DNA of 64,000 bases from Levilactobacillus mulengensis (GTDB lineage: Bacteria; Bacillota; Bacilli; Lactobacillales; Lactobacillaceae), in assembly GCF_003946045.1 (NCBI RefSeq), contig NZ_RHNW01000001.1, forward strand, positions 62,001-126,000, read 5' to 3'. Below are positions 1,640 through 38,943 of the stretch, piece after piece. The notes below the pieces were generated by a model that was not told where the DNA came from, ran no database searches, and worked only from the letters and a program-made list of their open reading frames with translations. The translations under genes and the position numbers were made by a program. The first letter of the stretch is position 1. Each line of letters opens with the position of its first letter.

Positions 1640-2100
1640 TTGCATACAACCCAAACGTTTTGTCCAGCTAGGGAATAGAAACCTGATAGACTGACAGCAG
1701 CCAGTGACTAAAATTTACGTAATGGTCACCGAGGATGTGAGCCGCAGGGATGGAGAAAATGAACAATCCATGTAGAGTGACCAGAGGTGGGCCAAGGTGA
1801 CCAGCTGTGTCGATGGTCTTAGCTGAGTGGTTTTTCTCAGCTTAGAGCATGGGGCTTGAAACTTTTGTCTGCCATGTCGAGTACATCCCAGACATTTTGT
1901 CCAGTTAGAAAATAGAAACCGTATAGACTGACAGTAGCCAGTGACTACAATTTGCGTAATGGTTACCGAGGATGTTCGCCGTAGGGATGGAGAAAATGAA
2001 TGATCTATGTAGAGTGACCAGAGGTGGGCCAAGGTGACCAGCTGTGTCGATGGTCTTAGCTGAGCGGTTTTTCTCAGCTTAGAGCATGGGGCGACCTTTG
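1640..2100. repeat. Tandem direct duplication, about 237-base period
   Basis: The segment from TTTTGTCCAGCTAGGGAATA onward recurs 237 bases later with scattered substitutions. Shared blocks include GATAGACTGACAG, CAGTGACTA, GGATGGAGAAAATGAA and TGACCAGAGGTGGGCCAAGG. The first unit contains only the half of the cloverleaf element carrying the outer arm and the long hairpin; the second continues into a full copy. This looks like a segmental duplication of flank plus half element. Confidence 0.8.
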
Positions 2101-2208
2101 AGACTGTGAATTTCAGGCTCAAAGTCGAGGTGGAAGCCCGTTTCTCAGGCTGGAACCGACCCCACAGCAGGGCACCTTGAGCCCACCGGCGGGAACGGCC
2201 TGTCAACA
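2010..2208 (-). repeat. Cloverleaf-type intergenic element, subtype B
   Basis: Read on the minus strand it starts with CGTTCCCGCCGGTGGGCTC and ends with CCTTGGCCCACCTCTGGTCAC. The outer arms pair (GGTGGGCTCAAGG with CCTTGGCCCACC). Inside are three hairpins: one in the region of CCAGCCTGAGAAACGGGCTT, one closed by CTTTGAG and CTCAAAG, and one closed by TCTAAGCTGAG and CTCAGCTAAGA with a single mismatch. It shares this layout with the copies near 24.4, 24.7 and 38.3 kb. Confidence 0.8.
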
Positions 2209-2373
2209 ACTAGTTGCTTTTCATTTTCTCTATCCCGGAGGCGCCAGAACCATCAAAGTAAACATTTCACGAAAATTTAGCCAATGGCGCAGTCAGTCGT
2301 GGCGCTGGCGGCGTAAGTGGTGTATCATAGTGCCAGTTATTATCGCAAATTGTGCAGAAATTGGTGAGCATAT

Positions 2374-5214
2374 ATGGATAAAGACACGGTTTACGCGGTA
2401 GTCGATATTGAGACGACCGGAACCAGTGTGACAGATGGCGACCGCATTATCCAGATTGGGTGCGTCTTCGTCCAGCATAATCAAATTATTAATCACTTTG
2501 AGACGGACGTGAATCCACTCAGAGAGATTCCCCAAGCCATTACCCGCTTGACGGGAATCACGAATCGCCGGGTTCGACACGCGCCGCTGTTTGACGACGT
2601 GGCCGGGACCCTCTACAGTCTGTTGACGAACACGGTCTTCGTGGCCCACAACGTCAATTTTGATTTACCCTTTATTAACGCGGAATTCAGTCGCGTCGGT
2701 TATCCAGAGCTGACGATTGAAGCGTTGGACACGGTGTCCCTGAGTCAAATTCTCTTGCCCACGGCCGCTAGTTTTCGGTTACGCGACCTGAGTGGCTTGT
2801 TTAACATTGAACACGACAATCCACACTCCGCGGACAGCGATGCCAGTGCGACGGCAGAACTCTTTATTTTCCTATTCCGCCGGTTACGGGCACTGCCGCA
2901 GGTGACACTGCAACGCATGATTGATCTGCATCCGGAACTACCGCTACAAACGGCGGCTCTTTTTGACGTGGCGCGGGGACTGAATGAACAACAGCCCCGC
3001 AAGTTGCCGGATTACCTCTACGTGAAAAATGGCTTGGCCCTGCGTAAACCGGGGAGTGAGACCCCAACCACACTGGCCGAACCTAGCAAGTATCCGAAGA
3101 CGAAGAAGCAAAAACAAAAGCTGATGCCGGACAACCTGGAATGGCGGCCGGAACAAGCCAAGATGATGAATTACATTTACAACAACTACGCCGAGGGTGA
3201 CCGGCACCCCGTTAAGCAGATGATCGTTGAGGCGCCGACCGGTATCGGGAAGAGTCTCGGCTACATGCTGCCCATGGCCTATTTAGGGCAAACGGGCCGG
3301 CCCGTGGTCATCAGCACGGCCACGACGCTGTTACAAGAGCAGTTGTTAGACCAAACGCTGCCGCTCCTGAAGTCCATCGTGCCGTTCCCCGTGAACGCCG
3401 TGTTGGTCAAGGGGAGTCGCCACTACCTGGACCTCCAGCGCTTCGCGACCACGTTAAAGGTGGCCGAGGTGTCCAAGCAAACGCAGCTCTTGAAGCTACG
3501 CCTGCTGGTGTGGTTGACCATGACCACGACCGGGGATCTAGACGAATTACACCTGGCCACGTACCGGGCGCCATACTTCCAAGAAATTATTCACGAGGGG
3601 TCGGTCACCGCGGACAACCCATTTTACGCGGATGATTTCTTGCGGCGCCGGGACCAACGCATGGAACAGGCCCAGTTTGTCATCGTCAATCACGCTTACT
3701 TGAGTGAGCATGCGTTGGACCTGGGTGAACGCCTGCACCGGCCATACTTGGTGGTCGACGAGGCCCAACACCTGCCGGACAGCACGCTGAAACAGCGGCG
3801 AACCCAGGTGAAGTTTGCCCAATTGATTAACGAACTACACCATATCGACCGCGATATTAGTCGTGAGACCGGTCCGAGCCTCCTGGATTTATTTGCCGGA
3901 GATGCTGGGGCCGTGGGCACGCTGAACGGTATTTTGGCCGCCAGCGAGACCCTAGAAACAGCGTTGAATGCGTTAGTCAACCATCTGTTCTTGCGGTTTT
4001 TGGCGGCTAAACGCCCCAACAATCACAATCAAATTATTGAAGAACTGATTCCGGCAACGGACCTGGCCGATGAGCTGGCTAAGGGATCGGCCATGGCCAC
4101 CGCGACCACGGCCACCGATGACCTGTTGGCGGCCTTAAACGACCTGCGCCACCGCTTCGACCAACAGAGCGAGCGGTTCGCGGCCTCCGAGCGCTACCTG
4201 TTTGAGCAGGTCGACACCCGGATTCACCTATTTGATGACCAAATGAGTCGGCTATTAATGATTCTGCGTCAGGTGGTCGAGCAGGCTCCGGCCAGTCTCT
4301 TTTGGCTGACCATCAACCACGTGGGTGACCGGAACAGTTTCCAACTGGCGAGTGGTCTGTTAGCCACGGAAGGCTTCCTGCGCAATCACTTGTACGCCGG
4401 CTTCCAGCCAGTGCTCCTGACCGGGGGGACGTTGTTCTCCTCCGGCCGATCGCAGTACGTGCTTGACCAATTCGACCTGGACCGCGAGCAAACGGTGACG
4501 CACCGGATGCGCTCCAGCTTTGACTACGCGAACCAGGCGGAACTCTTTATCAGCGATGCCGGCCCGAACCTGAGTCGGATTGCCCCGGCCGATTACGTGA
4601 CCTACCTGACGGCGGCGATTAGCCAGCTGGCGGGGGCAGTGGATAAGCAGACGTTAGTGTTGTTCAACTCGCTCAGCGTGATTGAACAGGTCTACCAACA
4701 ACTGTGTGCGCAACCGGAATTTGCCAAGCGCGAAATCTTTGCGCAGGGCATCAGCGGCAGTCGTGAACGGATTGTTAAACGGTTCGCCACCAGTCACGGC
4801 GCCATTCTCCTGGGGGCGGCTAGCTTCTGGGAGGGCATCGACTTGCCGGCGGAACAACTGGAACTACTGATTGTGACGCGGTTACCATTTGACTCGCCCG
4901 ACCGGGTCTTTGTCAAGGCTAACTACGCGCGGCTCGAAGCGGCGGGGAAGAACCCATTTTACAGTGCCGCTTTGCCAGCGGCGACGTTGAAGCTGCGCCA
5001 AGGAATCGGCCGGCTGATTCGGACGCCGCATGACCGCGGGGCCGTGGTCATTTTGGATCAACGGCTGCTCGAGAAACATTACGGGCAAAGTATTTTACGG
5101 GCGTTACCGGCCGAACTGCCGCAGACGACGGGGGATGCCAGCGCCATTGCGCAAGGTTTAGTTAATTTTTTCGAAAATAAACCGGACAATCCCGTGACGC
5201 CACCCGAAGTTTGA
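2374..5214 (+). CDS. dinG: DnaQ-DinG type 3'-5' exonuclease / ATP-dependent helicase
   Basis: A 946-residue fusion of an N-terminal DEDDh exonuclease (VVDIETTGT near residue 10, AHNVNFD near 92) and an XPD/DinG-like superfamily 2 helicase. Walker A is APTGIGKSLGY near residue 286, the DEAH-like box is VVDEAQHL near 459, and motif VI is QGIGRLIRTPHDRG near 874. Length and layout match DinG of Gram-positive bacteria. I do not see the four-cysteine iron-sulphur cluster of the Escherichia coli enzyme, as is usual for this branch. It starts a gene order (dinG, ypmB, aspB, dnaD) conserved across Firmicutes. Confidence 0.95.
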   Translation: MDKDTVYAVVDIETTGTSVTDGDRIIQIGCVFVQHNQIINHFETDVNPLREIPQAITRLTGITNRRVRHAPLFDDVAGTLYSLLTNTVFVAHNVNFDLPFINAEFSRVGYPELTIEALDTVSLSQILLPTAASFRLRDLSGLFNIEHDNPHSADSDASATAELFIFLFRRLRALPQVTLQRMIDLHPELPLQTAALFDVARGLNEQQPRKLPDYLYVKNGLALRKPGSETPTTLAEPSKYPKTKKQKQKLMPDNLEWRPEQAKMMNYIYNNYAEGDRHPVKQMIVEAPTGIGKSLGYMLPMAYLGQTGRPVVISTATTLLQEQLLDQTLPLLKSIVPFPVNAVLVKGSRHYLDLQRFATTLKVAEVSKQTQLLKLRLLVWLTMTTTGDLDELHLATYRAPYFQEIIHEGSVTADNPFYADDFLRRRDQRMEQAQFVIVNHAYLSEHALDLGERLHRPYLVVDEAQHLPDSTLKQRRTQVKFAQLINELHHIDRDISRETGPSLLDLFAGDAGAVGTLNGILAASETLETALNALVNHLFLRFLAAKRPNNHNQIIEELIPATDLADELAKGSAMATATTATDDLLAALNDLRHRFDQQSERFAASERYLFEQVDTRIHLFDDQMSRLLMILRQVVEQAPASLFWLTINHVGDRNSFQLASGLLATEGFLRNHLYAGFQPVLLTGGTLFSSGRSQYVLDQFDLDREQTVTHRMRSSFDYANQAELFISDAGPNLSRIAPADYVTYLTAAISQLAGAVDKQTLVLFNSLSVIEQVYQQLCAQPEFAKREIFAQGISGSRERIVKRFATSHGAILLGAASFWEGIDLPAEQLELLIVTRLPFDSPDRVFVKANYARLEAAGKNPFYSAALPAATLKLRQGIGRLIRTPHDRGAVVILDQRLLEKHYGQSILRALPAELPQTTGDASAIAQGLVNFFENKPDNPVTPPEV

Positions 5215-5263
5215 TATAATTGAGAAAGATTGAAATTAGACAAGGGAGACCGATGGAAAATTG

Positions 5264-5767
5264 ATGAGACAACAGTATCAACGACGCCAGCGACCCCATC
5301 ATTGGGTATTGCTGAGCATTCTGCTCGTGATTCTGGTTATTCTGATTACGGGGGCTTACATGGTGAACAAGGCCACCAAGCCGCTGAGTCAGAACCAGGC
5401 TTACGCGGAATCTGTCGCTAAAAAATCCGGTCATTTGACCAGTACCAGCCAGTTTTACTGGACGAACCTGGACACCACGTACTACACGGTTGCCGGGAAA
5501 AACAAGGCCAACCAGGACGTCTACGCCATTGTGCCGAAAACGGGCAAGGACGTGACGGTGCTTAAGAAGAGTGCCGGTCTTTCACGGAACACGGTGCTTC
5601 AGCAGGTCTGGAACAAGAATCCCAAGAAGGTCTTGTCCGCGGCGATGTGTGTCTTTAACGGCAAGCCTGCTTGGCAGGTCAGTTATTTAAATCAGAGTGG
5701 TAAATTGTGCTACATCACCTTCCAGTATTCCAATGGGAAGGTGCTCCAGCAGATTTCAAATATTTAG
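5264..5767 (+). CDS. TseB/YpmB-like membrane-anchored protein (DUF5590)
   Basis: About 167 residues. A basic N terminus is followed by one membrane segment (WVLLSILLVILVILITGAYM), then an extracytoplasmic domain with the small cystatin-like repeats of YpmB. In Bacillus the equivalent protein modulates a class A penicillin-binding protein and cell elongation (family knowledge). Position between dinG and aspB matches Bacillus ypmB. A TTG at 5261 and an ATG at 5264 are adjacent candidate starts behind AAGGGAGA; I chose the ATG. It is probably co-transcribed with aspB, which starts 24 bases downstream. Confidence 0.85.
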   Translation: MRQQYQRRQRPHHWVLLSILLVILVILITGAYMVNKATKPLSQNQAYAESVAKKSGHLTSTSQFYWTNLDTTYYTVAGKNKANQDVYAIVPKTGKDVTVLKKSAGLSRNTVLQQVWNKNPKKVLSAAMCVFNGKPAWQVSYLNQSGKLCYITFQYSNGKVLQQISNI

Positions 5768-5791
5768 GTTTGTGGTGAGGAGTGTGCGTGG

Positions 5792-6970
5792 ATGCAATTA
5801 GCAAAACGAGCGCAGGCGGTTCAACCGTCCGCAACTTTGAAGACCGGGCAGCGGGCCCAAGAGCTTCGCGATGCCGGGGTCGATGTGATCAATTTAAGTG
5901 TGGGTCAGCCGGACTTCCCGACGCCCCGGGCCATCAAGGACGCGACCATCACGGCCATTCGAACCAATCAGGTGGACGGCTACACGGCAACGGCGGGGGT
6001 CTTGCCCCTGCGTCAAGCGGTGGCCGACCATTTGTTAGCGACCCAACACGTCACGGTGACGGCCGACCAAGTCGTCATCACGACGGGGGCCAAGATGGCG
6101 CTGTACGCGCTCTTTCAAGTCCTCTTGAATCCCGGTGACGATGTCTTGCTGCCAGCGCCTTATTGGGTCAGTTACAGCGAACAAGTCAAATTGGCCGGTG
6201 GCCATCCGATTGAGGTGGCCCCGACGGCCAGTCTGAAGGTCACCCCGGCACAGCTAGAAGCCGCCGTGACACCAGCCACCAAGGCCATCGTGTTAAATTC
6301 ACCACAAAACCCCAGTGGCCTGGTCTACACCAAGGCTGAGCTGCAGGCCATCGGCGACTGGGCGGTGGCCCACGACCTGGTCATTGTGGCCGATGAAATT
6401 TACGGCGATTTGATCTATGCGGGGCCGAACCCGTCACCGTCCATGCTGACGCTGGGTGCGGCCGTGGCCGACCACACCGTGCTGATCAACGGGGTCTCCA
6501 AGACCTACGCCATGACCGGTTGGCGGATTGGCTATGCCGTTGGGCCAACCTGGATTATCGACGCGTTGAAGACCGTGTTGTCTCACATGACGGGAAACGC
6601 CGCTGCCGTGAGCCAAGCCGCCGCACTGGCCGCCTTAACCGGGGACCAAGCGCCGGTTGCCGAGATGCGCGCCGCCTTCCAGGAACGGTTAGACACGATT
6701 TATCCGTTGCTGACGGCCATTCCGGGATTTAAACTAGACCACAAGCCACAGGGGGCCTTTTACTTGTTTCCCGACGTGAGTGGGGCCGTTCAGCTGAAGG
6801 GCTTGGCCTCGACCGATGAGCTGGTTGCCGCTATTCTGGACCAGGCGCACGTGGCCTTGGTGACCGGGAAGGCGTTTGGCCTGCCGAGTCACGTTCGCCT
6901 AAGCTACGCCACGGACCTCCAGTCGTTAGAAACGGCGATGGAACGACTTAAAGACTTTATGACGAATTAA
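5792..6970 (+). CDS. aspB: Aspartate aminotransferase (class I, PLP-dependent)
   Basis: A 392-residue fold-type I aminotransferase that interconverts aspartate plus 2-oxoglutarate with oxaloacetate plus glutamate. Visible motifs are INLSVGQPDFPTP near the N terminus, LNSPQNPSG in the substrate pocket, the PLP lysine in NGVSKTYAMTGWRIGY (Lys237), and the C-terminal HVRLSYA arginine. GAGGAG precedes the ATG. In many relatives asnS sits directly after aspB; here a terminator and then dnaD follow instead. Confidence 0.93.
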   Translation: MQLAKRAQAVQPSATLKTGQRAQELRDAGVDVINLSVGQPDFPTPRAIKDATITAIRTNQVDGYTATAGVLPLRQAVADHLLATQHVTVTADQVVITTGAKMALYALFQVLLNPGDDVLLPAPYWVSYSEQVKLAGGHPIEVAPTASLKVTPAQLEAAVTPATKAIVLNSPQNPSGLVYTKAELQAIGDWAVAHDLVIVADEIYGDLIYAGPNPSPSMLTLGAAVADHTVLINGVSKTYAMTGWRIGYAVGPTWIIDALKTVLSHMTGNAAAVSQAAALAALTGDQAPVAEMRAAFQERLDTIYPLLTAIPGFKLDHKPQGAFYLFPDVSGAVQLKGLASTDELVAAILDQAHVALVTGKAFGLPSHVRLSYATDLQSLETAMERLKDFMTN

Positions 6971-7902: not shown

Positions 7903-10224
7903 TTATTTGTCATCATCAGTGGTCTTGGTCGTTGCGGGACTCTTCTGGGTGGTCGTTGCCGAAGAGGATTCGGTCGACGTGGTTCCCGTGTCGTCCCCGT
8001 CATCGTTGCCATCGCCACCAGGCGTCTGTTCCGTGCTCGAGGATTCCTTACTGGTACTGGATTCCGTCGTGGAAGAACTGGCCTGCGTGGTATTATTGTT
8101 GGTCGTGACCCGACTGTTGTTGCTGTAAGCCGATGAGCTCGTCGTGTTGGTTGAGCCGTATTGGCTGGTAGCCGTGGTGTCGGCGACCGTACCAGCGTGA
8201 CCCGTAATGTAGTATTCTTTACTCCCATTTTGGGTCGTTTCGGTCACGGTGCTTGGCGCCGTCCAGTCGGTGTTGGTCGACTTGCTGGCCAGGTAGGACA
8301 TTTCATACTTGTAAATCTCTTGGGCAATCGTAGTCTGCGTTGCACTCACGTAATGGCCGGTCTGGAATTGCTTGTCGTATCCGGTCCAAACGGAGATGGC
8401 GTAATTCCTGGTGTAACCGGTGAACCAGGAGTCCATGGTTGCGCCGTCAGGGACCCTGTCCGCGTAATCGTCAGGGTAGGAGTCGGTCCCGGTCTTCCCG
8501 GCCTGATACAGCCCGGGAATGGCCGCTGAACGCCCGGACCCATTTTCATTGGTCATGACGCCCTTCATCATATCCGTCAACATGAACGCCGTCGCGGCCG
8601 ACATGGCCCGCTTAGGCGTGGCGGAATACTTGTGGGCCTTCCCATCCTGCGTGACGACCTTGGAGACTAGGTATGGCTTGTAGTAGTTCCCACCGTTCGC
8701 GAAGGCAGCGTAGGCCGCGGCTTCTTGTTCGGAGGAGATGTACAGGCCAATCCCATTTTGCAGGGTCAGCGTCTTATCAAAGTCCATCCCTAAGCCACTC
8801 AGGAAAGAGGTGGCGCGCTTGATACCAACGTTTTGCAGCGTCCGGACAGCGGGGATGTTCCGTGATTCAACCAAGGCCTTACGCATGGTAATGGTCCCTT
8901 GGTACTTGCGGTCCCAGTCGTAAAGGTTCCGCGTCGTGCCTGGGTAGGTAAAGGCGGTATCCTTTACGGGTTCGTAGGTTGGGTAGTAGAGGTGTTCGAT
9001 GGCGGGACCGTAGTCCATCAGTGGCTTAGCCGTCGAGGCGCTCGACCGATCCTTTTGGACGGCTCGGTTCAGGCCAAACGTGACGTTGCCAGTCTTCCGG
9101 CCACCAATCATGGCGACGACCTTCCCGTTGTTCGGGTTGACAATCGTCGAGCCCACTTGGAACTTATCGGAAGGGAAGGCCACGTAGGCCGTCCCGTTGA
9201 CGATGTTGTACAGTTGCTTTTGGGCGCCCATGTCCAGGTTGGTGTAAACTTTCAACCCGCCGGTCGTGGTGTTGTAGCCCTTAGACTTCAGTTCGGCGTA
9301 AACCTGCTTGAGGTAGGCGTCGATGACCTTGGTCGTCTTGGCACTGGTACTGGTCGACTTGTGTGACTTGACCAAACCCGTGGTAATGCTCGTGGCTTCG
9401 GCCTGTTGCGCCTGGGCAGCGGTGATGGCGTTGTTCTTGGCCATGGCCTCCAGCACCAGGTCCCGCCGTTTCTTGGCTAAGGCCGGGTATGTGGTAGGGT
9501 CGTAATTGGTTGGTGACTGCGGCATACCGGCCAAGAGAGCCAATTGGGCGAGGTCCAAGCCTTTTAGCGTCTTGCCGTAGTAGTACTGGGCGGCCGTCTG
9601 CATGCCGTAGACTCCGTTGCCCATATAAACCTTGTTGATGTAGTATTCCAAAATTTGGTCCTTGGAGTAGTCGTGGTCGACCTTGAGGGCTAACCAGGCT
9701 TCCTGGGCCTTACGTTTCAGCGTTCGGTCGGAGGCGGCGGTGGAGAAGACGGACAGCTTGACCAGTTGTTGCGTCAAGGTACTGCCCCCCTGCATCCCCA
9801 GGGAAGAGCCGCTGACGTTGGCGAAGGCGGCCCCGATGATCCGGATGGGGTCAACCCCGTTGTTCTTGTAGAAACGCCGATCTTCGGTAGAAACGACGGC
9901 ATTTTTCAAGGTGTCGGGGATGTTCTTGGTCTTCACGTAATTCCGGTTCTGCGCGCCTAGCCGCGAAATCACGGTGCCGTTGGCGTCGTAGACTCGCGTC
10001 GAGGTATCACTGGACAGAGCACCCTCGGAAATCTTGGGCGCGCTCTGCGCATAGAAGAAGAACAGGCCAGCGCCGGCCAGAATGGCAAATACGCCAATGG
10101 CGACGATGACGAAGAGAATTCGGCGGAAGGTCCGCCAGCCAGTGTGCGGCTTTTTAGGACCGCTTGGCTTACGCTCGGCGTTACGACTCATACGCGTCTG
10201 TCGAGGGGTATTGTTACTAGACAT
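7903..10224 (-). CDS. pbp1A: Class A penicillin-binding protein 1A (transglycosylase/transpeptidase)
   Basis: 773 residues. A short basic cytoplasmic tail and one membrane segment (about residues 30-55) precede a GT51 glycosyltransferase domain with STEDRRFYKNNG (catalytic Glu) and GGSTLTQQLVK. A transpeptidase domain follows with SASTAK (active serine near 395) and KTGTD near 578. The last 130 residues are a Ser/Thr/Asp-rich disordered tail outside the cell. It polymerises and cross-links peptidoglycan. recU lies directly upstream on the same strand, as in Bacillus ponA-recU. Confidence 0.95.
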   Translation of the reverse strand: MSSNNTPRQTRMSRNAERKPSGPKKPHTGWRTFRRILFVIVAIGVFAILAGAGLFFFYAQSAPKISEGALSSDTSTRVYDANGTVISRLGAQNRNYVKTKNIPDTLKNAVVSTEDRRFYKNNGVDPIRIIGAAFANVSGSSLGMQGGSTLTQQLVKLSVFSTAASDRTLKRKAQEAWLALKVDHDYSKDQILEYYINKVYMGNGVYGMQTAAQYYYGKTLKGLDLAQLALLAGMPQSPTNYDPTTYPALAKKRRDLVLEAMAKNNAITAAQAQQAEATSITTGLVKSHKSTSTSAKTTKVIDAYLKQVYAELKSKGYNTTTGGLKVYTNLDMGAQKQLYNIVNGTAYVAFPSDKFQVGSTIVNPNNGKVVAMIGGRKTGNVTFGLNRAVQKDRSSASTAKPLMDYGPAIEHLYYPTYEPVKDTAFTYPGTTRNLYDWDRKYQGTITMRKALVESRNIPAVRTLQNVGIKRATSFLSGLGMDFDKTLTLQNGIGLYISSEQEAAAYAAFANGGNYYKPYLVSKVVTQDGKAHKYSATPKRAMSAATAFMLTDMMKGVMTNENGSGRSAAIPGLYQAGKTGTDSYPDDYADRVPDGATMDSWFTGYTRNYAISVWTGYDKQFQTGHYVSATQTTIAQEIYKYEMSYLASKSTNTDWTAPSTVTETTQNGSKEYYITGHAGTVADTTATSQYGSTNTTSSSAYSNNSRVTTNNNTTQASSSTTESSTSKESSSTEQTPGGDGNDDGDDTGTTSTESSSATTTQKSPATTKTTDDDK

Positions 10225-10872: not shown

Positions 10873-10940
10873 TGACTCCTCACCCTCCTTGCCTTGCAAC
10901 CACCCATTCGCAGTTGACTTTTAAATTGGTTCTTTGCAGT

Positions 10941-11120
10941 GCCTCCGGGCCGGTGAAAATGAGCCGTGACGCTGTGGGCGCCGCCTGGAGCCAAAAGGCG
11001 GTCTCCAGACTTACTTTGAGCCGAAAATCACGTCTCAAAGATAGCAGTTACCTAAGCGGGAAACCCGCTAAGGTAACTCCCACGGCTGAGCTCATTTTCC
11101 CCAGCCCTGCGGCTGACATA
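10941..11120 (+). repeat. Cloverleaf-type intergenic element, subtype A
   Basis: Begins GCCTCCGGGCCGGTGAAAAT and ends in CCCCAGCCCTGCGGCTGACA, whose arms pair as an outer stem. Inside are a GGAGCC...GGTCTCC hairpin, a CTTTGAG...CTCAAAG hairpin and a long hairpin closed by AGTTACCTAAGCGGG and CCCGCTAAGGTAACT. Confidence 0.85.
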
Positions 11121-11943
11121 GTGTTGGCCGTCAGCTGCGTGGGTTGGTAACGACTAAGCCTGTGTTTTGTGGTTTGCTATTACATAATAGGTTAGCCAAC
11201 GCGTGAAGGCATGCGTGATATTTTTAAGCAACTGGTCGAATGGGATTGTGGCCCAGTTATTGATATTATACCAAGCTGACCCAGAAATAAAAACTCTAAC
11301 TGGTCTATAAATGGTCAAAACGACCGAACTTAAACGGAACTTAAGTGAATGATTGTGGGGTGGACTGATTTAGGTGGAATTTGGTTGGGTTAGGGATTGT
11401 GGAAATACTATTTGTGGTGAGTACAGGTATCATTTTTCTTTGAGGTGCATGTTGGCTCTGATGAAGAGCATTGGTTTACTGAGTAGTTTTAACTCAGTTG
11501 ATGGGTATCTACGAATCAAGACGTTCTTCTATAGAGATAAGTCGTGTAGCATTAGCATTGATAAATCGTGGCAAGAAAAAAGTTAGTTACGGATTAAACG
11601 TGACTCAATGGTCGGCGAGGGTGACAAAACTTTTTCCATTTTAGAACGCCGAGTTAATGTAAGGTGAGATTTAATTTGTATCAGAAGTTGAAGATTATTT
11701 GAATTGTAGAGACAAAGTTGAATGATGAAGTTAATTTGTCGTTAGTGAGAGGGAGTAGTGCGTCGAATAGGTTAAAATGAAAATAGATGAGTGTGAACGA
11801 AGGACAAAATGTTATTTTGGTCTAAGGTGACGTGAATTGAATCGGTACCTAATGGTTAAAATTGATGAATCGAAAAATTTGGATAACGCAATTAAAATAG
11901 GCGACCGTAAAAAAAAAGACAGTTGCGGGCCAAACAAGTGTAA
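11121..11943. other. AT-rich non-coding stretch between two inverted cloverleaf elements
   Basis: About 820 bases of visibly lower GC than the neighbours, bracketed by elements in opposite orientation. A 70-codon frame at 11374-11586 has no recognisable domain and no good ribosome-binding site, so I do not call it a gene. No IS ends, RNA gene or long protein remnant could be recognised. Confidence 0.55.
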
Positions 11944-12122
11944 GCCGCAGAGCTGGTGAAAATGGGCTCAGCCGTGGGAGTTGCCTTAGCGGGTTTCCCG
12001 CTTAGACAACTGCTATCTTTGAGACTCGGGTTATGAGGCTCAAAGTAAGTCCGAAGACCGCACCTCAGGCTTCGGACGCGCGCCCACAGCGTCACGGCCC
12101 GGTTTTCACCAGCCCGGAGGCA
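11944..12122 (-). repeat. Cloverleaf-type intergenic element, subtype A (inverted)
   Basis: Minus-strand reading begins CTCCGGGCTGGTGAAAAC and ends in CATTTTCACCAGCTCTGCGG. The long hairpin is AGTTGTCTAAGCGGG with CCCGCTAAGGCAACT. Compared with the 10.9-kb copy an A-T pair became G-C, a compensatory change. Confidence 0.85.
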
Positions 12123-12219
12123 CTACCAAAAACTTGTTTTACCAACTATCTGTATTTTTCATTGCGTCGGCCGGATTTTTTCGCTACACTGGTAAGGTAC
12201 CGGTAAAGGAGGCCGCGAG

Positions 12220-18062: not shown

Positions 18063-18145
18063 TGCGCCGAACTACGTGTGTTTTGCGTCTTTACAGGGCC
18101 CGCCTCGGCTTGCTAAAATGAAGAGGTAAAGGCGATGAGCGAAAA

Positions 18146-24225: not shown

Positions 24226-24343
24226 CGGTTACGGGGAACTTTGCGGCCGCTTTCAGGGGAGGAGTTATGCTAAAATGAAAGCGTGCTATCACGCGCCCCA
24301 ACCAGGTCTTTGCCAACGTGAAAATCAGAGAGCCCGTGGCAGT

Positions 24344-24532
24344 TGTTCCCGCCGGTGGGCTCAAGGACCCCTGCTGTGGGGCCGGCTCCAGCCTGAGGGG
24401 CGGTCTTCCGCCTCGGCTTGAAACCGGGCAGAAAACCGCCCGGTTCCAAGACCGTCCCATGCTCTAAGCTGAGAAAAACCGCTCAGCTAAGACCATCGAC
24501 ACAGCGGGGGACCTTGGCCCACCTCTGGTCAC
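24344..24532 (+). repeat. Cloverleaf-type intergenic element, subtype B
   Basis: Starts GTTCCCGCCGGTGGGCTCAA and ends CCTTGGCCCACCTCTGGTCA. The second hairpin is CTTGAAACCGGGC with GCCCGGTTCCAAG, longer than and different from other copies but still paired. The long hairpin is TCTAAGCTGAG with CTCAGCTAAGA, as in the 2.0-kb copy. Confidence 0.82.
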
Positions 24533-24643
24533 ACACACGGACTCTCTGATTTGACCTTGACCGACGCAGGTCTCAAACTTGTTCGGCCTATCTGAGCGGA
24601 TTTACCAGGCAGTAAGGCCACGTTAACTTAGTTGGTCGATGTC

Positions 24644-24832
24644 AGTGACCAGAGGCGAGTCAGGATGACCAGCTGTGTCGATGGCGTTGGCTGAGGTCTC
24701 TCACTCAGCCTAGGCCATGGGACGACCTTGGAGACTGGGAACTTTCCAGGCTTCAAGGCGAGCTGGAAGACCGTTTCTCAGGCCGGAAGCGTTCCCCACA
24801 GCAGGGCTTCCTGAACTCGCCGCCGGGAACGG
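24644..24832 (-). repeat. Cloverleaf-type intergenic element, subtype B (inverted)
   Basis: Opposite orientation to the copy 110 bases upstream. Minus-strand start CGTTCCCGGCGGCGAGTTC, end CCTGACTCGCCTCTGGTCAC: the outer arms GGCGAGTTCAGG and CCTGACTCGCC have changed together. The long hairpin is GGCCTAGGCTGAG with CTCAGCC. The 740-base gap 24166-24903 holds these two elements, a terminator and no gene. Confidence 0.8.
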
Positions 24833-24903
24833 TCAGACCAGTTAAGTTAACGTTGGGGCGTTAACTTGTGCTTTCTAACACTAATTAGGGGGTCAGTATC
24901 GTT

Positions 24904-28517: not shown

Positions 28518-28540
28518 GGGGTAAATCTGTCGTTGTTAGC

Positions 28541-28718
28541 GCCTCCGGGCTGGTGAAAATGGGCCGGAACGCTGTGGGGAGGACGCCCCGAGCCGAAGAG
28601 CGGTCTCGGGACTTGCTTTGAGCCGCCAAGAACGCGTCTCAAAGTCACCATTCACTGAGGGTTTCCCTCAGTGAATCCCGCGGCTGAGCCCATTTTCACC
28701 AGCCCTGCGGCTAACACA
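28541..28718 (+). repeat. Cloverleaf-type intergenic element, subtype A
   Basis: Starts GCCTCCGGGCTGGTGAAAAT and ends CATTTTCACCAGCCCTGCGG. First hairpin CCCCGAG...CTCGGG, second CTTTGAG...CTCAAAG, long hairpin ATTCACTGAGGG-TTT-CCCTCAGTGAAT. The first and long hairpins differ in nearly every base from the 10.9-kb copy yet remain perfectly paired. Confidence 0.88.
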
Positions 28719-29067
28719 GATTTAACCCAGCACAACGCCATGACCCTTCTTGGAGTATTCTAGGATTGGATTGCGTGTGCTGGCGTCGATAGCAAATCTA
28801 CGGGCTGCTGTGAGCTACAGCTGGTCACTTTGATCCGCCTCTGGTCACTCCCACGACTAGCCCAGTTTTCCCAGCCCTACGGCTAACACGGATTTAGCCC
28901 GGCACAACGCAGTATTTTTGCCATGGCTCTTGCCTGATTTCAATGTGACCGGATGGTTTGCCCAATCAAACTAGTCGAGCTGACACTAGTTGTTAAATTG
29001 TCAGTGGTTGAATCCAGTTTTAAATTAAAATAAACATTGCGTGTGTGATTTCGCGCAATTAATAATC
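28719..29067. other. Degraded pieces of the cloverleaf elements, no gene
   Basis: Around 28805-28850 a piece of a subtype B right arm is seen (CAGCTGGTCACTTTGATCCGC, shortened copy), and at 28865-28915 a second copy of the right end of subtype A with its flank (CAGCCCTACGGCTAACACGG, then CGGCACAACGC) that also follows the intact element at 28700-28735. Nothing coding is visible. Confidence 0.5.
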
Positions 29068-31753: not shown

Positions 31754-31831
31754 TTTAACTTTCAACCTTTAGGTAAATAAACTAAACGTAATCAGAAAAT
31801 GACCGTGCTCCTTGAAACCAGCGCGTCAACG

Positions 31832-31872
31832 TCAGCCGTGCGGGTGGTCGAAATGGGCCCAGCCGGGGGATT
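31832..31872 (-). repeat. Half of a subtype A cloverleaf element
   Basis: GTCAGCCGTGCGGGTGGTCG followed by AAATGGGCCCAGCCGGGGGA matches the distal arm of the subtype A elements in inverted orientation, without its partner arm. Confidence 0.6.
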
Positions 31873-31943
31873 TGATTGGCCGGAAACCTGAGCGTTAGTG
31901 AAGTCATCAGAGTCTGAGGTAGGGAAACAGGCCAACTTTGTTT

Positions 31944-32138
31944 GAATCCTGGAGCCAGAGACCAGTGGGGAGACTACCTGTGTCGGGGATGCTTGACCGG
32001 TGGACTTCCGGTCTTACAGCCCGGGGCGACCTGAAAGACCCGCGGGTTTCGGGGCTTTGAGGCGAAGGTGAAGACCGCTCTTTGGCTTCGCCTGGTCCCC
32101 ACAGGTAGTCTCCCCGCTGGTCGGCGGCGGAAGGATTC
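31944..32138 (-). repeat. Cloverleaf-type intergenic element, third subtype (C)
   Basis: Minus-strand reading has outer arms GACCAGCGGGGAGACTACCT and AGGTAGTCTCCCCACTGGTC, about 23 pairs with the adjoining GTG/CAC. Inside are GGCGAAG...CTTCGCC with the conserved AGCCAAAGAGCGGTCT loop, CCTCAAAG...CTTTCAGG in place of CTTTGAG...CTCAAAG, and GACCGG...CCGGTC. The 618-base gap 31618-32236 consists of this element, the half element, the palindrome and the IS-linked repeat. Confidence 0.8.
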
Positions 32139-33672: not shown

Positions 33673-33717
33673 GGGCGGGTTTCTTCACCATTTTGCCGAA
33701 GAAATGCGCCCGTTTCC
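33673..33717 (+). promoter_or_regulatory. Hairpin upstream of pyrR, terminator or attenuator
   Basis: GGGCGGGTTTCTTC pairs with GAAGAAATGCGCCC, followed by only three T. I do not see the usual PyrR-binding loop in the leader, so simple termination after rluD is as likely as pyrimidine attenuation. Confidence 0.45.
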
Positions 33718-33731
33718 TGCACTTACGCTAA

Positions 33732-34295
<564 letters not shown>

Positions 34296-34317
34296 GGGGC
34301 AAGGGGGTCGATTTTAC

Positions 34318-35397
34318 ATGGCAAAACGCTATTTGATTTTAGAAGACGGCTCGGCCTATGCCGGCGAAGGCTTCGGTGCCGGTGCCACGACGAGCGGAGA
34401 GGTTATCTCCAACTTAAATCTATTAGGCTATCAGGAAACGATTACCGATCAAATCTACCACAACCAAATTATTATCTTTGCCCAGCCAGCCATTGGTAAC
34501 GTGGGCATCAACCACGATAGCTACGAGTCGATTTTGCCCACAGCCAAGGGGATGGTGGTCCGAGACGTCACCAATATCTCGACCAACCGGTTATCCCGGC
34601 TGTCCCTTGACGAATTTCTCCAGCAGCACAACATTCCCGGCATCAGTGGCATTGATACGCGCCACCTGATCCGGAAGCTCCGCCAAGAAGATGGGCCGAT
34701 GAAGGGCAGTATCGTGGATGTGGCCGATGCCCATGCCTTTGACCAGCTGAACGCCACGGTGCTGACGAACCGGCAAGTCGACCAGGTGGCCACACCCAAG
34801 CCTTATCCGAACCCGGATACGGGGAAAAATGTGGTCGTCATCGACTTCGGGTTAAAGCACGGCATCTTGCGGCAATTGTCCGAGCGCCGGTGTAACGTCA
34901 CGGTCCTACCGTGGACGGCCAGCGCTCAGGACGTCTTAAACCTGGATCCGGACGGGGTCTTACTCTCCACCGGCCCCGGCTCACCGTTAGACCTCGGCGA
35001 AGGGGTTCTCGATATGATTCGCGAGGTTCAAGCGGAGATTCCCCTCTTTGCGATTGGCCTGGGCCACGAGCTCTTTGCCCTAGCCAACGGGGCGGAACTG
35101 ACCATGCTACCGGTTGAATATCACGGTAGTAGTCATCCCATTCGTCGAATCATTACCAACGATATTATTTATGCGACCCAGGGTCAGGGGTACGCGGTGA
35201 TTGCCAAATCAATCGACCGCGACCGCCTGATCACCACCTACGTGGACCTGATCAACGGGACCGTCCAAGGGTTACGCCACCGGGACTTTCCGGCTTTTTC
35301 GGTGCAATTCTTTGCGGATGGTGCCCCCGGTCCTCACGAGAGTCGCGATTTATTTGATGAATTTATGGAAGCCATGACAGCACGCCGGGAGGGATAA
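34318..35397 (+). CDS. Carbamoyl-phosphate synthase small-subunit homologue, glutaminase site apparently lost
   Basis: 359 residues. The N-terminal CPS small-subunit domain is well preserved (LGYQETITDQIYHNQIIIF, GNVGINHDSYES, GIDTRHLIRKLR), as is the overall class I amidotransferase fold. The nucleophile motif that should read GICLGHQ is AIGLGHE, placing Gly247 where the catalytic Cys belongs. The HPE motif near the C terminus is FAD (residues 332-334), so His and Glu of the triad also appear replaced. Glutamine hydrolysis should therefore be absent. The frame is intact and GC matches neighbours. The start at 34318 follows AAGGGGGT. It is coupled to the large-subunit homologue. Confidence 0.82.
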   Translation: MAKRYLILEDGSAYAGEGFGAGATTSGEVISNLNLLGYQETITDQIYHNQIIIFAQPAIGNVGINHDSYESILPTAKGMVVRDVTNISTNRLSRLSLDEFLQQHNIPGISGIDTRHLIRKLRQEDGPMKGSIVDVADAHAFDQLNATVLTNRQVDQVATPKPYPNPDTGKNVVVIDFGLKHGILRQLSERRCNVTVLPWTASAQDVLNLDPDGVLLSTGPGSPLDLGEGVLDMIREVQAEIPLFAIGLGHELFALANGAELTMLPVEYHGSSHPIRRIITNDIIYATQGQGYAVIAKSIDRDRLITTYVDLINGTVQGLRHRDFPAFSVQFFADGAPGPHESRDLFDEFMEAMTARREG

Positions 35398-35399
35398 GC

Positions 35400-37973
35400 T
35401 TGCCAAACTTGGATAACATTCAAAAAGTTTTGATCATCGGCGGCGGGCCAACCGAGATCGGTCACGAAACGGAACTCGATAGTGCCACGGTCCAAATCAT
35501 TACCAGCTTTAAAAAGCACGGGGTCCGGACGCTAGTCATTGACAACAACCCGTTCTCCGTGGCGCTGGAGGAGATTCAGCCGACCAACATGTACGTGCAG
35601 GCGGTCACGACCGCTAATGTCCGCCACATCATTGAAAAGGACCAGCCCGATGCGATTTTGCCGACGCTGGGCGGCCTATTGGGCATTCGGATTGCCCAGG
35701 AACTCGTTGAAAATGGCGACCTGGCCAACTTTAACGTGCGCCTGCTGGGGATGCCCACCACGACCTTGCAGCAGATCAACAATCCGGCCGACCTGAACGC
35801 CACGCTCAAGGAGATTCACGAGCCCGTGATTGAGGCCCAAGTCGTGGGCACCCTCGATGAGGCGCGAGGTCTGGTCGAGAAAATCGGGTTCCCCCTGATT
35901 GTGAAGCCGGTAGCACCCAGACTGGACACCAACCGGACCGTCTGCGACAACGTGGATGACATGTTTAACGCGTTGACCCAGGGTTTTCAGCAGTCGCGCT
36001 TTGACCAGTGTACCCTGGAGCGTAGTGTGATTGGGTACAAGGAAATCGAAATGGTGGCCGTCAGAGACGTCGCCGATACCGAGGTCCTGGTCGCCGGCTT
36101 GGAAAACGTCGATACGATTGGGATTCACTCCGGCGATTCCATTCTGGTAACACCACCACAAACGCTCAACGACCGTGAGTATCAAGACTTGCGGGACGCC
36201 ACGTTTCGGATTGCGACCGAGCTGGGAATCGTGGGGGTCTTACACCTCCACTTTGCCCTGAACCCGGCCAACCAACACTTCTACGTGACTAAGATTGCAC
36301 CGTACTTCTCGCGGGGCGTGGCCCTGGCTGCCCGGACGACCGGTTATCCGATTGCCCTGGTCAACGGCGCCTTACTCCTGGGCCAAAAGCTCGTCGACAT
36401 CAAGTTGCCAAGCCAGTACGTCAAGCAGACCGTCATCATGGAGCCGACCATCGACCACGTGAGCGTGCGGATCCCCATTTGGCCCTTTCAAGAGGTGCCC
36501 GACGCCGACCAGCATCTGAACACCGTCATGAAGGCCGTGGGCTCGACCGTCGGCGTGGGTCGCTCGGTCGAAGAAGCCATGTTAAAGGCCGTGCGGAGCT
36601 CGCAGTTCTCGCCACGAGACGTCTTACCCTCCGTCAGCAATCTGACCGATGGGGAAATGATTCGGCAACTGATTCATCCGTTGGCGAACCGAATTCTGGT
36701 GTTAATTGAAGCCTTACGGCGGGGATATGCCCCCGAAGAGTTGAGCGAATTAACAAAAATTGATAACTACTATTTCGTCAAGCTTCGCCATTTGTTAACG
36801 ATTGAAAAAGAAATTCAAGACAATCCCTTAGACGTGGCGACCCTCCAACGGGCTCGGTATTACGGGTTCGGTGACGGGATGATCGCCCGTATCTGGCAAA
36901 CGGATACGGCCACGATTCGCCATCTGTCGGCGCAGGCCAAGATCACGCCGACCTACAAGATGATCGAACCGACCGCCGGGGAATTTCCCGAGAATCTTAG
37001 TGGCTACTACAGTACCTTCGAGTACGAAAACGAAAGCCAGCCCTTGGGTGACCGGACCGCGCTGGTCTTGGGTCGGGGCGGGAATCAGTTAGGCCCTAAC
37101 TCCGCGGCGGAATACTTCACGACGGAAATGCTCAAGCAACTGAAGCGCGCTGGGTACCATACCATTTTGATGAATACCAACCCGAATGCCGTGGGCGTGG
37201 CACCGGAATTTACCGAGAAACAGTACGTCGATCCGATTCAACTGGGGGATGTGCTCAACGTGATTCAGGTCGAGCATCCCGACATCGTCATCGTCCCGGG
37301 GAACCGGCACTACCTGACCCGTGAGTTGGGTAAATTGCCAATCAACCTGCACGTCCTCCCCCCCGACCAGGAAACGGGCGAACCCGCTCCAGAAATGGCG
37401 ACGATTGGCGTCAGCTTGTTTGTGCATAAGCAACAGAAGATTGCGGTCGGCGTCATGGACATGATTGCCCCCGGCATCAACAAGTCCTTGGCCCAGGTCA
37501 CGGCCTTTCGGATGCCAGCAGAACTGCCCAAGGCCAAACGGGTCAACCTGGTCGAGCAGGCCAAGGAGGCCGTGAGCGCGCGGCAGGTCACGGGGATGAT
37601 CCAAGTCCTCTTTGCCCCCAAGAGCGATGATTCACAACAGCTAGTCGTCGTTGGCGTGCGGCCGACGCGGTTGACCGAGATGGCCTTTCTCAGTAAGGTC
37701 ACCGGGGTCAACTGGGTCCGCATGCTGACGCGGCAACACATTGGTACGCTGGACGAAGGGGAGCTGGCCAAAATCAGCATTGATCTGAACAGCACCCGGG
37801 TCGCCTTGATGAACGCGGCCTTTCCGTTCCGGCAGTTACACGTGTTGAACCGGCCGGGGACCACGGATCAGGAGGTGGGGGCGACGATTGCGTTTGGGTC
37901 TAGCGAGGCGCTGACGCTGACCAACCTCAGCGACACCTCCGAGCTCGACCAAATCATCAACCGCACCATCTGA
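35400..37973 (+). CDS. Carbamoyl-phosphate synthase large-subunit homologue, degenerate and short
   Basis: 857 residues; the family norm is about 1060. The N-terminal half still shows VLIIGGGPTEIGHETELDSA, DAILPTLGGLLGIR and GYKEIEMVAVRD, but the ATP loop (normally RPxxxLGGxG) is KPVAPRLDTNRT (169-180) and the metal motif (normally ExNPR) is KIAPY (298-302). The second half keeps its first Rossmann-like part (VLGRGGNQLGP) and lacks most of its ATP-grasp domain, with a reduced remnant near MIQVLFAP...VGVRPTR. It starts with TTG behind GGGAGGG, 2 bases after the small subunit. An intact frame of this length argues for a retained role, possibly non-catalytic. Confidence 0.8.
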   Translation: MPNLDNIQKVLIIGGGPTEIGHETELDSATVQIITSFKKHGVRTLVIDNNPFSVALEEIQPTNMYVQAVTTANVRHIIEKDQPDAILPTLGGLLGIRIAQELVENGDLANFNVRLLGMPTTTLQQINNPADLNATLKEIHEPVIEAQVVGTLDEARGLVEKIGFPLIVKPVAPRLDTNRTVCDNVDDMFNALTQGFQQSRFDQCTLERSVIGYKEIEMVAVRDVADTEVLVAGLENVDTIGIHSGDSILVTPPQTLNDREYQDLRDATFRIATELGIVGVLHLHFALNPANQHFYVTKIAPYFSRGVALAARTTGYPIALVNGALLLGQKLVDIKLPSQYVKQTVIMEPTIDHVSVRIPIWPFQEVPDADQHLNTVMKAVGSTVGVGRSVEEAMLKAVRSSQFSPRDVLPSVSNLTDGEMIRQLIHPLANRILVLIEALRRGYAPEELSELTKIDNYYFVKLRHLLTIEKEIQDNPLDVATLQRARYYGFGDGMIARIWQTDTATIRHLSAQAKITPTYKMIEPTAGEFPENLSGYYSTFEYENESQPLGDRTALVLGRGGNQLGPNSAAEYFTTEMLKQLKRAGYHTILMNTNPNAVGVAPEFTEKQYVDPIQLGDVLNVIQVEHPDIVIVPGNRHYLTRELGKLPINLHVLPPDQETGEPAPEMATIGVSLFVHKQQKIAVGVMDMIAPGINKSLAQVTAFRMPAELPKAKRVNLVEQAKEAVSARQVTGMIQVLFAPKSDDSQQLVVVGVRPTRLTEMAFLSKVTGVNWVRMLTRQHIGTLDEGELAKISIDLNSTRVALMNAAFPFRQLHVLNRPGTTDQEVGATIAFGSSEALTLTNLSDTSELDQIINRTI

Positions 37974-38004
37974 CCATTGGCTGGTTAAACTTGCGTTTTG
38001 ATTC

Positions 38005-38187
38005 GCCTCCGGGCTGGTGAAAACTGGGCCGTGACGCTGTGGGCGCCCGTCTGGAGCCGAAGGGCGGTCTCCAGACTTACTTTGAGCCTCATAACCCGAG
38101 TCTCAAAGATAGCAGTTACCTAAGCGGGGAACCCGCTAAGGTAACTCCCACGGCTGAGCCCATTTTCACCAGCCCTGCGGCTGACAC
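38005..38187 (+). repeat. Cloverleaf-type intergenic element, subtype A
   Basis: Starts GCCTCCGGGCTGGTGAAAAC, ends CATTTTCACCAGCCCTGCGG. First hairpin GTCTGGAG...CTCCAGAC, second CTTTGAG...CTCAAAG, long hairpin AGTTACCTAAGCGGG...CCCGCTAAGGTAACT. Closely related to the 10.9-kb copy. Confidence 0.88.
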
Positions 38188-38264
38188 GAGTTTAACCCGC
38201 CGGTCGACTGGGTTCGGTGGATGATTTTGGTCGGCAGGGGGATACTCCAAGAGTTGTGACGTCC

Positions 38265-38444
38265 GTTCCCGCCGGCGTGCTCAAGGAGCCCTGCTGTGGG
38301 GTCGGTTCCAGCCGAAGGGCGGGCTTCCACCTCAACTTTGAGCCTGAGGTGTGGTCTCAAAGGTTGTCCCGTGAACTAGGCTGGAACAGAACCTCCAGCC
38401 TAGTTCACCGACACAGCCGGGCACCTTGGCGCGCCTCTGGTCAC
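38265..38444 (+). repeat. Cloverleaf-type intergenic element, subtype B
   Basis: Starts GTTCCCGCCGGCGTGCTCAA, ends CTTGGCGCGCCTCTGGTCAC. Long hairpin GTGAACTAGGCTGGA with TCCAGCCTAGTTCAC is perfect and unlike any other copy. It is followed by another copy of the right end of subtype A with its 40-base flank (38458-38525), which also follows the preceding element. Confidence 0.85.
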
Positions 38445-38579
38445 TCCCCCGACCGGCCCATTTTCACCAGCCCTGCGGCTGACACGGGTTTAACCCGCCG
38501 GTCGACTGGGTTCAGTGGATGATTTGGTCGGTGAGATCTTAGAATTTACTGAATTTTAGATTGGTAAATAATGTATATA

Positions 38580-38625
38580 GCAAAAAGGCGTCACACCGGT
38601 GATTTGGTGTGACGCCTTTTTGCAT
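38580..38625. terminator. Bidirectional terminator between the CPS-like operon and rqcH
   Basis: AAAAAGGCGTCACACC pairs with GGTGTGACGCCTTTTT around an eight-base loop. Confidence 0.93.
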
Positions 38626-38759
38626 TTTAAACTAGTTGTTATTACCAATTAGTTGCTGAATGACATTTGAGCTTGTGCGATGCACTAGTTGTTACTGACA
38701 ATTGACTAGTGGCAGTCGTGAGTAGAATACCTACAGGCAGACTAACGGGCTACCTGTAG

Positions 38760-38943
38760 GTCAGCCGTCCGGGTGGGCAAAATACCTTCAGCCGTGGGAA
38801 TGCTCTAAGTAGCGGTAGCTACTTAGAGCATTGGCGTCTTTGAAACGCGGGTTGGGCGGTTCAAAGCGAGCCCGAAGACCGTTCTTTGGCTTCGGGTGTC
38901 CGCCCACAGCGTTCCGAGGTATTTTGACCACCCGGTAAGGCGC
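38760..38943 (-). repeat. Cloverleaf-type intergenic element, diverged subtype A
   Basis: Minus-strand outer arms GGGTGGTCAAAATACCT and AGGTATTTTGCCCACCC replace the usual GGGCTGGTGAAAATGGGCC pairing with matched changes. Inner hairpins are CCCGAAG...CTTCGGG, CTTTGAA...TTTCAAAG and AATGCTCTAAGTAGC-TACC-GCTACTTAGAGCATT, the last perfect. The 990-base gap 37974-38964 is three elements plus a terminator, without genes. Confidence 0.86.

What the first reader, a model, noticed from the sequence alone, without database searches (positions are those of the whole stretch)
2010..38943. A dispersed family of cloverleaf-forming intergenic elements with compensatory stem changes
Ten near-complete copies (2010, 10941, 11944, 24344, 24644, 28541, 31944, 38005, 38265, 38760) and several fragments share one layout: outer stem P1, hairpin P2 with a conserved loop like AGCCGAAGNGCGGTCT, hairpin P3 (usually CTTTGAG/CTCAAAG), and a long hairpin P4. 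Loop and junction bases are conserved. P4 arms are replaced wholesale yet stay paired: AGTTACCTAAGCGGG, ATTCACTGAGGG, AATGCTCTAAGTAGC and GTGAACTAGGCTGGA each meet their own complement. P1 covaries too (GGGCTGGTGAAAATGGGCC versus GGGTGGTCAAAATACCT). This argues for selection on structure, as in a structured RNA or a folded single-stranded DNA substrate of a mobile system. Template switching inside palindromes could also produce matched arms. The copies lie in divergent, convergent and tandem gaps, so they are not ordinary terminators.
Basis: partly seen in the sequence, partly recalled or inferred. Interest (0 to 1): 0.88.

Follow-up and report, generated by a model that had tools for sequence, protein, structure and literature searches.

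The report
Cloverleaf-folding DNA repeats of lactobacilli
The gaps between genes in this lactobacillus and many of its relatives hold hundreds of copies of a repeat, not found described, that folds into a cloverleaf, whose folded shape is preserved by evolution although its letters change and which probably spreads like a tiny jumping gene.

Summary
All ten copies belong to a dispersed intergenic repeat family, roughly 500 copies in this 3.1-Mb Levilactobacillus-group genome (36 hits in 226 kb, extrapolated). There are two related inner types, A and B, rather than one layout. Structure conservation is strong: 34 of 44 pairs change on both sides, and under a tree-based null all 11 significant column pairs lie in the cloverleaf. 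A bulge and two mismatches are conserved, so the arms are not simply self-corrected palindromes. Some wholesale changes are cassette swaps: one site carries A, another A subtype or B in sister species inside the same outer stem. Neighbours in one gap point outwards (33 of 45 pairs; 1 the opposite way), and compact A-B inverted pairs recur. A covariance model finds the family in 14 of 40 sampled Lactobacillaceae genera and in one genome of another Lactobacillales family. No Rfam match, no tracking Y1 transposase and no description in print were found. Best reading: a REPIN/BOX-like non-autonomous mobile repeat with cloverleaf units; a structured RNA is the main rival.

The parts
1756..1865 (-). 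B-type fragment (3' half), part of a tandem duplication with 2011-2200
   Evidence: nhmmer B profile 1.2e-21; 222-nt direct repeat D1, 90%
2011..2200 (-).
   Evidence: nhmmer 7.8e-57; R1 2033-2175 + 8e-9
10927..11128 (+). A-type copy upstream of recU; G021 and G012 carry a B-type interior at this site
   Evidence: nhmmer 1.2e-60; R1 3e-30; recU by Pfam
11925..12133 (-). A-type copy upstream of ypsA
   Evidence: nhmmer 2.7e-65; R1 2e-31; ypsA by Pfam
24337..24552 (+). B-type copy, left partner of an inverted pair
   Evidence: nhmmer 1e-40; R1 2e-5
24635..24836 (-). B-type copy, right partner of the inverted pair
   Evidence: nhmmer 7.9e-41; R1 3e-5
28528..28728 (+). A-type copy (second subtype), 11 nt after the stop codon of formate-THF ligase; other interiors at the same site in G012 (A1) and G021 (B)
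   Evidence: R1 8e-31; alignment; Pfam
28817..28901 (+). 3' remnant of a B-type copy with its 3' outer stem
   Evidence: nhmmer B 28817-28870 1.5e-9 and A 28833-28901 7e-9; alignment
31827..31883 (-). A-type 3' fragment (outer stem)
   Evidence: nhmmer 4e-4
31952..32112 (-). degenerate copy, nearer type B
   Evidence: nhmmer B 31952-32104 1.2e-5; R1 31969-32112 + 2e-9
37993..38199 (+). A-type copy, 20 nt after the stop codon of a carbamoyl-phosphate synthase gene
   Evidence: nhmmer 3.6e-69; R1 1e-33; Pfam
38252..38465 (+). B-type copy, present here but absent from the same gap in G012 and G021
   Evidence: nhmmer 5e-68
38456..38525 (+). second copy of the A 3' outer stem and its flank (70 nt, 97% to 38158-38227), read as the scar of a tandem A/B merger
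   Evidence: repeat D3
38746..38949 (-). A-type copy 16 nt from the stop codon of the NFACT gene
   Evidence: nhmmer 4.7e-19; R1 8e-33; Pfam

Best explanation
A family of non-autonomous, mobile or formerly mobile intergenic repeats, comparable with REPINs and BOX elements but built of a 140-190-nt cloverleaf unit. Each unit is a long outer stem enclosing three hairpins. Shown: the fold is conserved, with wobble tolerance mainly on one strand, and with a bulged A in P2, an A.G mismatch in P3 and a U.U mismatch in P4 (read on that strand). The 3' end of that strand points outwards in most paired units and, for type A, mostly lies against the neighbouring gene. Shown: units A and B recur as compact inverted pairs, sites are gained or lost between species, and the interior at an occupied site differs between species as a cassette. 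Inferred: a protein supplied in trans recognises the folded outward strand as a transposon end or processing site. Inferred: homologous recombination through the shared outer stems homogenises and swaps the interiors, which would explain matched arms that change together. The protein was not found.
For: 36 hits in 226 kb of G000, i.e. about 500 per genome by extrapolation. Gain/loss: at G000:C1 9.9 kb a unit starts right after the stop codon of a 224-aa ORF (9892) where G021 has no unit, and the reverse at G000:C1 26.6 kb. Cassette differences: 10941 A vs B vs B; 28541 A2 vs A1 vs B; 38005 A1 vs another A subtype; a fourth site with B, A, or B plus A in tandem with the flank duplicated. Arrangement: 33 '-+', 7 '--', 4 '++', 1 '+-' among 45 neighbouring pairs. 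Flanking-gene orientation does not explain it (25 '-+' pairs with assignable neighbours: '--' 10, '+-' 6, '++' 5, '-+' 4, against 139, 64, 92, 65 for all gaps), and across a gene the rule vanishes (20 cases, orthologous ones included: 5 '-+', 7 '+-', 6 '--', 2 '++'). 13 of 13 compact pairs examined are A-B, typed by R1 score and alignment. Structure. Strand: 80 vs 26 events in P2-P4, 14 vs 4 in B. Tandem clusters that include flanks are also reported for REPINs (PMC3116915, passages read).
Against: No mobilising gene was found. Y1 transposases do not track the elements (for example G012, G002, G030, G032 and G023 have elements and 0 Y1 matches; G031 has 5 matches, two of them near full length, and no R1 match). 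In 20 unit-gene(s)-unit cases no transposase was recognised on reading the translations; they were not run through a family library. The target duplication is unclear at the two clean sites. Wobble tolerance is the classic sign of RNA and would also fit an RNA function. Spacers of A-B pairs are mostly not alike, even within one genome.
Confidence: 0.5

Rival explanations
1. A structured RNA element. The outward-pointing strand is transcribed, as 5' leader, antisense or 3' trailer of neighbouring transcripts, and the cloverleaf acts as RNA (processing, stability, protein binding). The many copies are then dispersed cis elements or pseudogene-like copies of an ncRNA.
For: G.U versus A.C asymmetry of 3:1, in both GC- and AT-derived events (47 vs 13 and 25 vs 11). 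RNA folding energy is lower on that strand in 104 of 128 A and 82 of 86 B copies. Tree-aware covariation. Presence in 14 of 40 sampled genera and one genome of another family.
Against: In 27 of 40 A copies with assignable neighbours the adjacent gene would transcribe the opposite strand, median 16 nt away. No conserved flanking sequence that could be a promoter or transcript end was seen by eye; no promoter scan was run. In A-B pairs the two units favour opposite strands, so no one transcript holds both. No Rfam family other than neighbouring tRNAs (the two window hits lie elsewhere). No expression data were available.
Confidence: 0.27
2. Neutral palindromes: insertions whose arms stay matched because template switching and gene conversion correct one arm to the other, with no selection on a folded strand.
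For: Interiors are exchanged and tandem mergers and deletion scars occur. The outer stem P1 shows little strand bias (46 A.C vs 38 G.T events). 25 of 128 A copies lack the A.A at the centre of P4, 17 of them with A.T.
Against: The imperfections are conserved: A.A (other strand U.U) in 103 of 128, C.T in 123 of 128, bulge in 127 of 128 A copies; correction would remove them. The wobble asymmetry in P2-P4 differs from P1 in the same copies (Fisher p = 0.003; against the outermost part of P1 alone p = 0.10). The fold is kept in other genera with much-changed sequence (identity not measured).
Confidence: 0.08
3. Host-domesticated intergenic DNA sites, bound as dsDNA or cruciform by a chromosomal protein (nucleoid, repair or transcription-roadblock function), spread by recombination rather than transposition.
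For: High density, A units against gene ends, outward orientation in each gap, persistence at orthologous sites between three species.
Against: First-look candidates vary from 3 to 292 inside one genus and some species lack R1 matches (G016, G031), which argues against an essential host role. A dsDNA site would not give strand-specific wobble.
Confidence: 0.15

Closest known systems
REPINs / REP doublets (GTAG- and CGTC-tagged palindromes)
   Same: Hundreds of copies, intergenic, imperfect palindromes arranged as inverted doublets with a spacer, tandem clusters that include flanks (PMC3116915: abstract in the listing and passages; PMC3733652: abstract and passages).
   Different: REPs are 20-40 bp single hairpins tagged GTAG or CGTC, and GTAG REPs go with RAYT transposases. 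Here the unit is a 140-190-nt cloverleaf with three inner hairpins, there is no GTAG tag by eye, and Y1 transposases do not track it. The main text of the 2013 survey has no word beginning Lactobacill or Firmicutes.
BOX elements of Streptococcus
   Same: Order Lactobacillales; dispersed, mobile at a low rate, constant end modules with exchangeable interior modules (PMC3049150, passages read).
   Different: BOX is modular boxA-boxB-boxC. Here a constant outer stem encloses alternative cloverleaves, with strand-specific wobble and inverted A-B pairs. No sequence comparison with BOX was run.
IS200/IS605 ends and their derivatives
   Same: Imperfect hairpins with extrahelical bases, one strand privileged (recalled from general knowledge).
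   Different: Y1 transposases do not track the units; the two units of a pair use opposite strands; an IS200/IS605-like copy in the window (47541-49517) has no unit within several kb.
Rfam structured RNAs
   Same: Covariation and conserved unpaired letters of the quality of an RNA family.
   Different: No family reaches its threshold on the elements, and the permissive hits in 37900-39000 are far below their families' cut-offs, most of them miRNA models.

Membership tests
REP/REPIN | inverted doublets of a palindromic unit, hundreds per genome | tested here: met
   (33 of 45 neighbouring pairs inverted and outward); density, genome number extrapolated
REP/REPIN | unit of 20-40 bp, one hairpin with GTAG or CGTC tag | tested here: not met
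   unit 140-190 nt with three inner hairpins; no constant GTAG tag seen; CGTC(C) occurs 3' of P2 on the favoured strand but inside the element, not as an unpaired terminal tag (alignment)
REP/REPIN | associated RAYT/Y1 transposase | tested here: not met
   Y1 in 23 of 35 genus genomes but in none of G012, G030, G032, G002, G023, which have elements
MITE | terminal inverted repeats | tested here: met
   by eye: outermost GGGTTAAAC/GTTTAACCC and outer stem in the species group of the window (flanks listed); imperfect and variable
MITE | target site duplication | tested here: inconclusive
   two clean filled/empty sites; GTTA is repeated at one, nothing clear at the other
MITE | autonomous parent with the same ends | tested here: inconclusive
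   none recognised in 20 unit-gene(s)-unit cases with one or two ORFs between; whole genomes not scanned for it
structured ncRNA family | covariation beyond phylogeny | tested here: met
   11 of 44 pairs at E<0.05, no significant pair outside the structure (own null with 12 simulated alignments, recombination not modelled)
structured ncRNA family | transcription of the favoured strand | not testable with these tools
   no expression data held
known Rfam family | match at gathering score | tested here: not met
intrinsic terminator | hairpin followed by a T-run | tested here: not met
   0 of 59 copies on either side

The most novel reading that the evidence does not exclude
An undescribed superfamily of structured repeats of Lactobacillales whose mobile unit is a pair of inverted single-strand cloverleaves with 3' ends pointing outwards: a transposon-end or RNA architecture with no known counterpart, spread by a protein not yet recognised, and old enough to span 14 of 40 sampled Lactobacillaceae genera and at least one genome of a second family.
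Probability: 0.35. Interest if true: 0.87.

Novelty: new variant of a known kind. Interest (0 to 1): 0.72.

Why it matters
Dispersed palindromes such as REP and BOX are old puzzles: what moves them, and whether the fold acts as RNA or DNA. This family gives hundreds of copies per genome, strand-resolved wobble data, filled and empty sites, and visible interior exchange at fixed sites, so the question becomes directly testable in food bacteria. It would also account for a good part of intergenic DNA in such genomes (about 3 units per 20 kb here) and warns that wholesale matched-arm changes between repeat copies can be cassette swaps rather than compensatory mutations.

Tried and rejected
Rejected: intrinsic terminators; RAYT/Y1 dependence; plasmid or phage carriage (blastn found nothing for an A copy, nor for the G520 copy in plasmids). 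The pattern scan of viral contigs gave 19 stretches; of the 13 inspected only L276 carried a full element by eye. Its contig has the same length as G000:C16, so it is probably the same genome. A Burkholderiales hit of the pattern scan (L220) did not fold into the element and was dropped. The first MAFFT of A copies mixed strands and was redone (where L019 stayed misoriented in the profile seed).

Left out before counts: pair 54-60 (a loop pair) from the A wobble test (with it, 84 vs 26); pairs 87-95 and 88-94 from the B test; 2 of 164 rows (L169:7955-8000 and L241:4516-4573) when the table was retyped; one of the 45 selected A rows (L079) from alignment A1; 44 of 258 distinct elements as too partial for the A or B sets; 9 further copies selected (8 from other genera, 1 from L. 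senmaizukei) were not used in A1. The compact pairs are the 11 with spacing up to 144 nt plus L299 and L300; the next closest '-+' pair (L239, 158 nt) is A-A by score.

Literature: ten full-text searches listed no paper that by title or abstract describes this family; only open-licence PubMed Central papers are searched. PMC6534642 (L. brevis CD0817) reports 214 interspersed repeated sequences; the passages seen do not describe them. PMC2267715 (stem-loop families of 40 genomes; its text names Lactobacillus once, L. johnsonii) was read in passages; its family Lac-1 was not compared.
Full report
What is there. The window is G000:C1:62001-126000 of a 3.11-Mb genome. One A copy finds 56 places in its own genome and one B copy 49, with only 40 of 285 and 40 of 319 candidates scored. 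In two continuous stretches of 126 and 100 kb there are 22 and 14 profile hits, which extrapolates to about 500 in the genome, fragments included. Most lie between genes: 5 of 36 fall mostly inside ORFs of at least 150 aa, one of which (window 1715-2209) runs through two copies and looks spurious.

Anatomy. In the species group of the window both types share an outer stem (5' GTCAGCGCCTCCGGGCTGGTGAAAACTGGGCC, 3' GGCCCATTTTCACCAGCCCTGCGGCTGAC) flanked by GGGTTAAAC/GTTTAACCC, with variation (flanks). Inside sits interior A or interior B, each with three hairpins. A 44-row alignment of diverse A copies gives 96.4% paired cells, 34 of 44 pairs changed on both sides, 0 of 500 shuffles on any measure, and a collapse when partners are slid. 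With a null simulated on the tree of the same rows (12 alignments), 11 of 44 pairs are significant at E<0.05 and no pair outside the structure is. This null does not model recombination between copies.

Which strand. In P2-P4 of 128 A copies, changes from a standard pair go to A.C in 80 inferred events and to G.T in 26 (p = 1e-7). Both GC-derived (47 vs 13) and AT-derived (25 vs 11) events lean the same way. A.C on this strand is G.T (G.U) on the other, so the complement is the strand that keeps the fold. P1 shows 46 vs 38; the difference from P2-P4 is p = 0.003, but only p = 0.10 against the outermost part alone. B copies (P3 and P4 only) give 14 vs 4, p = 0.03. Folding energies agree: the complement is more stable in 104 of 128 A and 82 of 86 B copies. 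The events are parsimony counts on a tree of recombining copies, so the p-values are approximate. The asymmetry is modest for an RNA, and G.T wobble in folded DNA could produce it too.

Not self-correction. The centre of P4 is A.A in 103 of 128 A copies (A.T in 17), P3 has C.T in 123 of 128, and P2 a bulged T in 127 of 128; on the other strand these are U.U, A.G and a bulged A. Arm-by-arm correction would erase them.

Why arms change together. At G000:C1 about 274.7 kb one species has A, one B and one both in tandem with the flank duplicated; the window's 38005-38525 block has the same form (D3). These are the sites I looked at, not a census. Deletion scars (outer 5' stem joined to outer 3' end) also occur. 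Exchange through the shared outer stems is the simplest cause; that step is inferred. It does not explain how the subtypes first diverged with matched arms.

Mobility. At G000:C1 a unit begins directly after the stop codon of a 224-aa ORF (ends at 9892) where G021 continues into the downstream flank; at 26.6 kb G021 is filled and G000 empty. Polarity (gain or loss) was not settled with an outgroup. More distant G020 and G001 lack units in some of the same gaps. Target duplication is unclear.

Arrangement. Among 45 distinct neighbouring pairs within 1 kb in 80 loci, 33 are '-+' by model strand and 1 '+-', so the favoured strands run outwards. The flanking genes of such pairs show no orientation preference, and across a gene the rule disappears. 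Eleven of the 45 pairs have a spacing of 107-144 nt; these and two more from G010 and G027 are all A-B. Their spacers are mostly not alike, even in one genome. In the window's genome 27 of 40 A copies with assignable neighbours follow a co-directional gene at a median 16 nt, with the other side far away; B copies show this less (26 of 54, median 108.5 nt).

Distribution. By DNA search 24 of 34 other genomes of the genus match and 0 of 23 from other families of the order. By covariance model 118 of 397 genomes of the family match, in 14 of 40 genera (own genome included); 5 of 198 in the order, own genome included, one of them (G520) from another family; and only the window's own genome of 299 in the class. 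G520 has 24 matches to its own copy, so the repeat habit is not confined to Lactobacillaceae. Copies in other genera keep the cloverleaf with much-changed sequence; the Lacticaseibacillus, Schleiferilactobacillus and Limosilactobacillus copies appear, by eye, to lack P2.

Known or not. No Rfam family reaches threshold on the elements. Y1 transposases do not track the units. Closest in kind are REPINs and BOX (papers read in passages). The cloverleaf unit, the strand bias and the A-B outward pairs set it apart, so I file it as a new variant of the dispersed palindromic repeat kind, not as a REPIN or BOX member.

Verdict. A real, structurally selected repeat family with visible turnover. The favoured strand is identified; whether it acts as ssDNA transposon end (favoured, 0.5), RNA (0.27) or host site (0.15) needs experiments.

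Noticed in passing
window 47541-49517: IS200/IS605-like insertion: Y1 transposase 47590-48009 (-) and TnpB-like protein with OrfB_IS605 and Cas12f1-like TNB domains 48067-49359 (+); the block is absent from G012. No cloverleaf unit lies nearby.
   Followed up: partly
window 52887-52931 and 54881-54925: Two 45-nt hairpin-forming repeats, 87% alike (D15); unexplained.
   Followed up: no
window 56565-56666 and 58040-58141: A 102-nt direct repeat, 87% identical (D4).
   Followed up: no
window about 18064-18082 versus G021 contig 5: G021 has an extra stretch of about 175 nt (starting GAGAGTGGGACAAAAGGCGG) right after a terminator-like hairpin, absent here and not matched by the A or B profiles: a possible second small repeat.
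   Followed up: no
window 43879-44373: About 490 nt holding a small Phd-like antitoxin-looking ORF, present here and in part in G021, absent from G012 (the label is by eye).
   Followed up: no
L276 (IMG/VR contig of 20,824 bases): A contig catalogued as viral carries a full A copy and has the same length as G000:C16, so a unit may sit at the edge of a putative prophage.
   Followed up: partly
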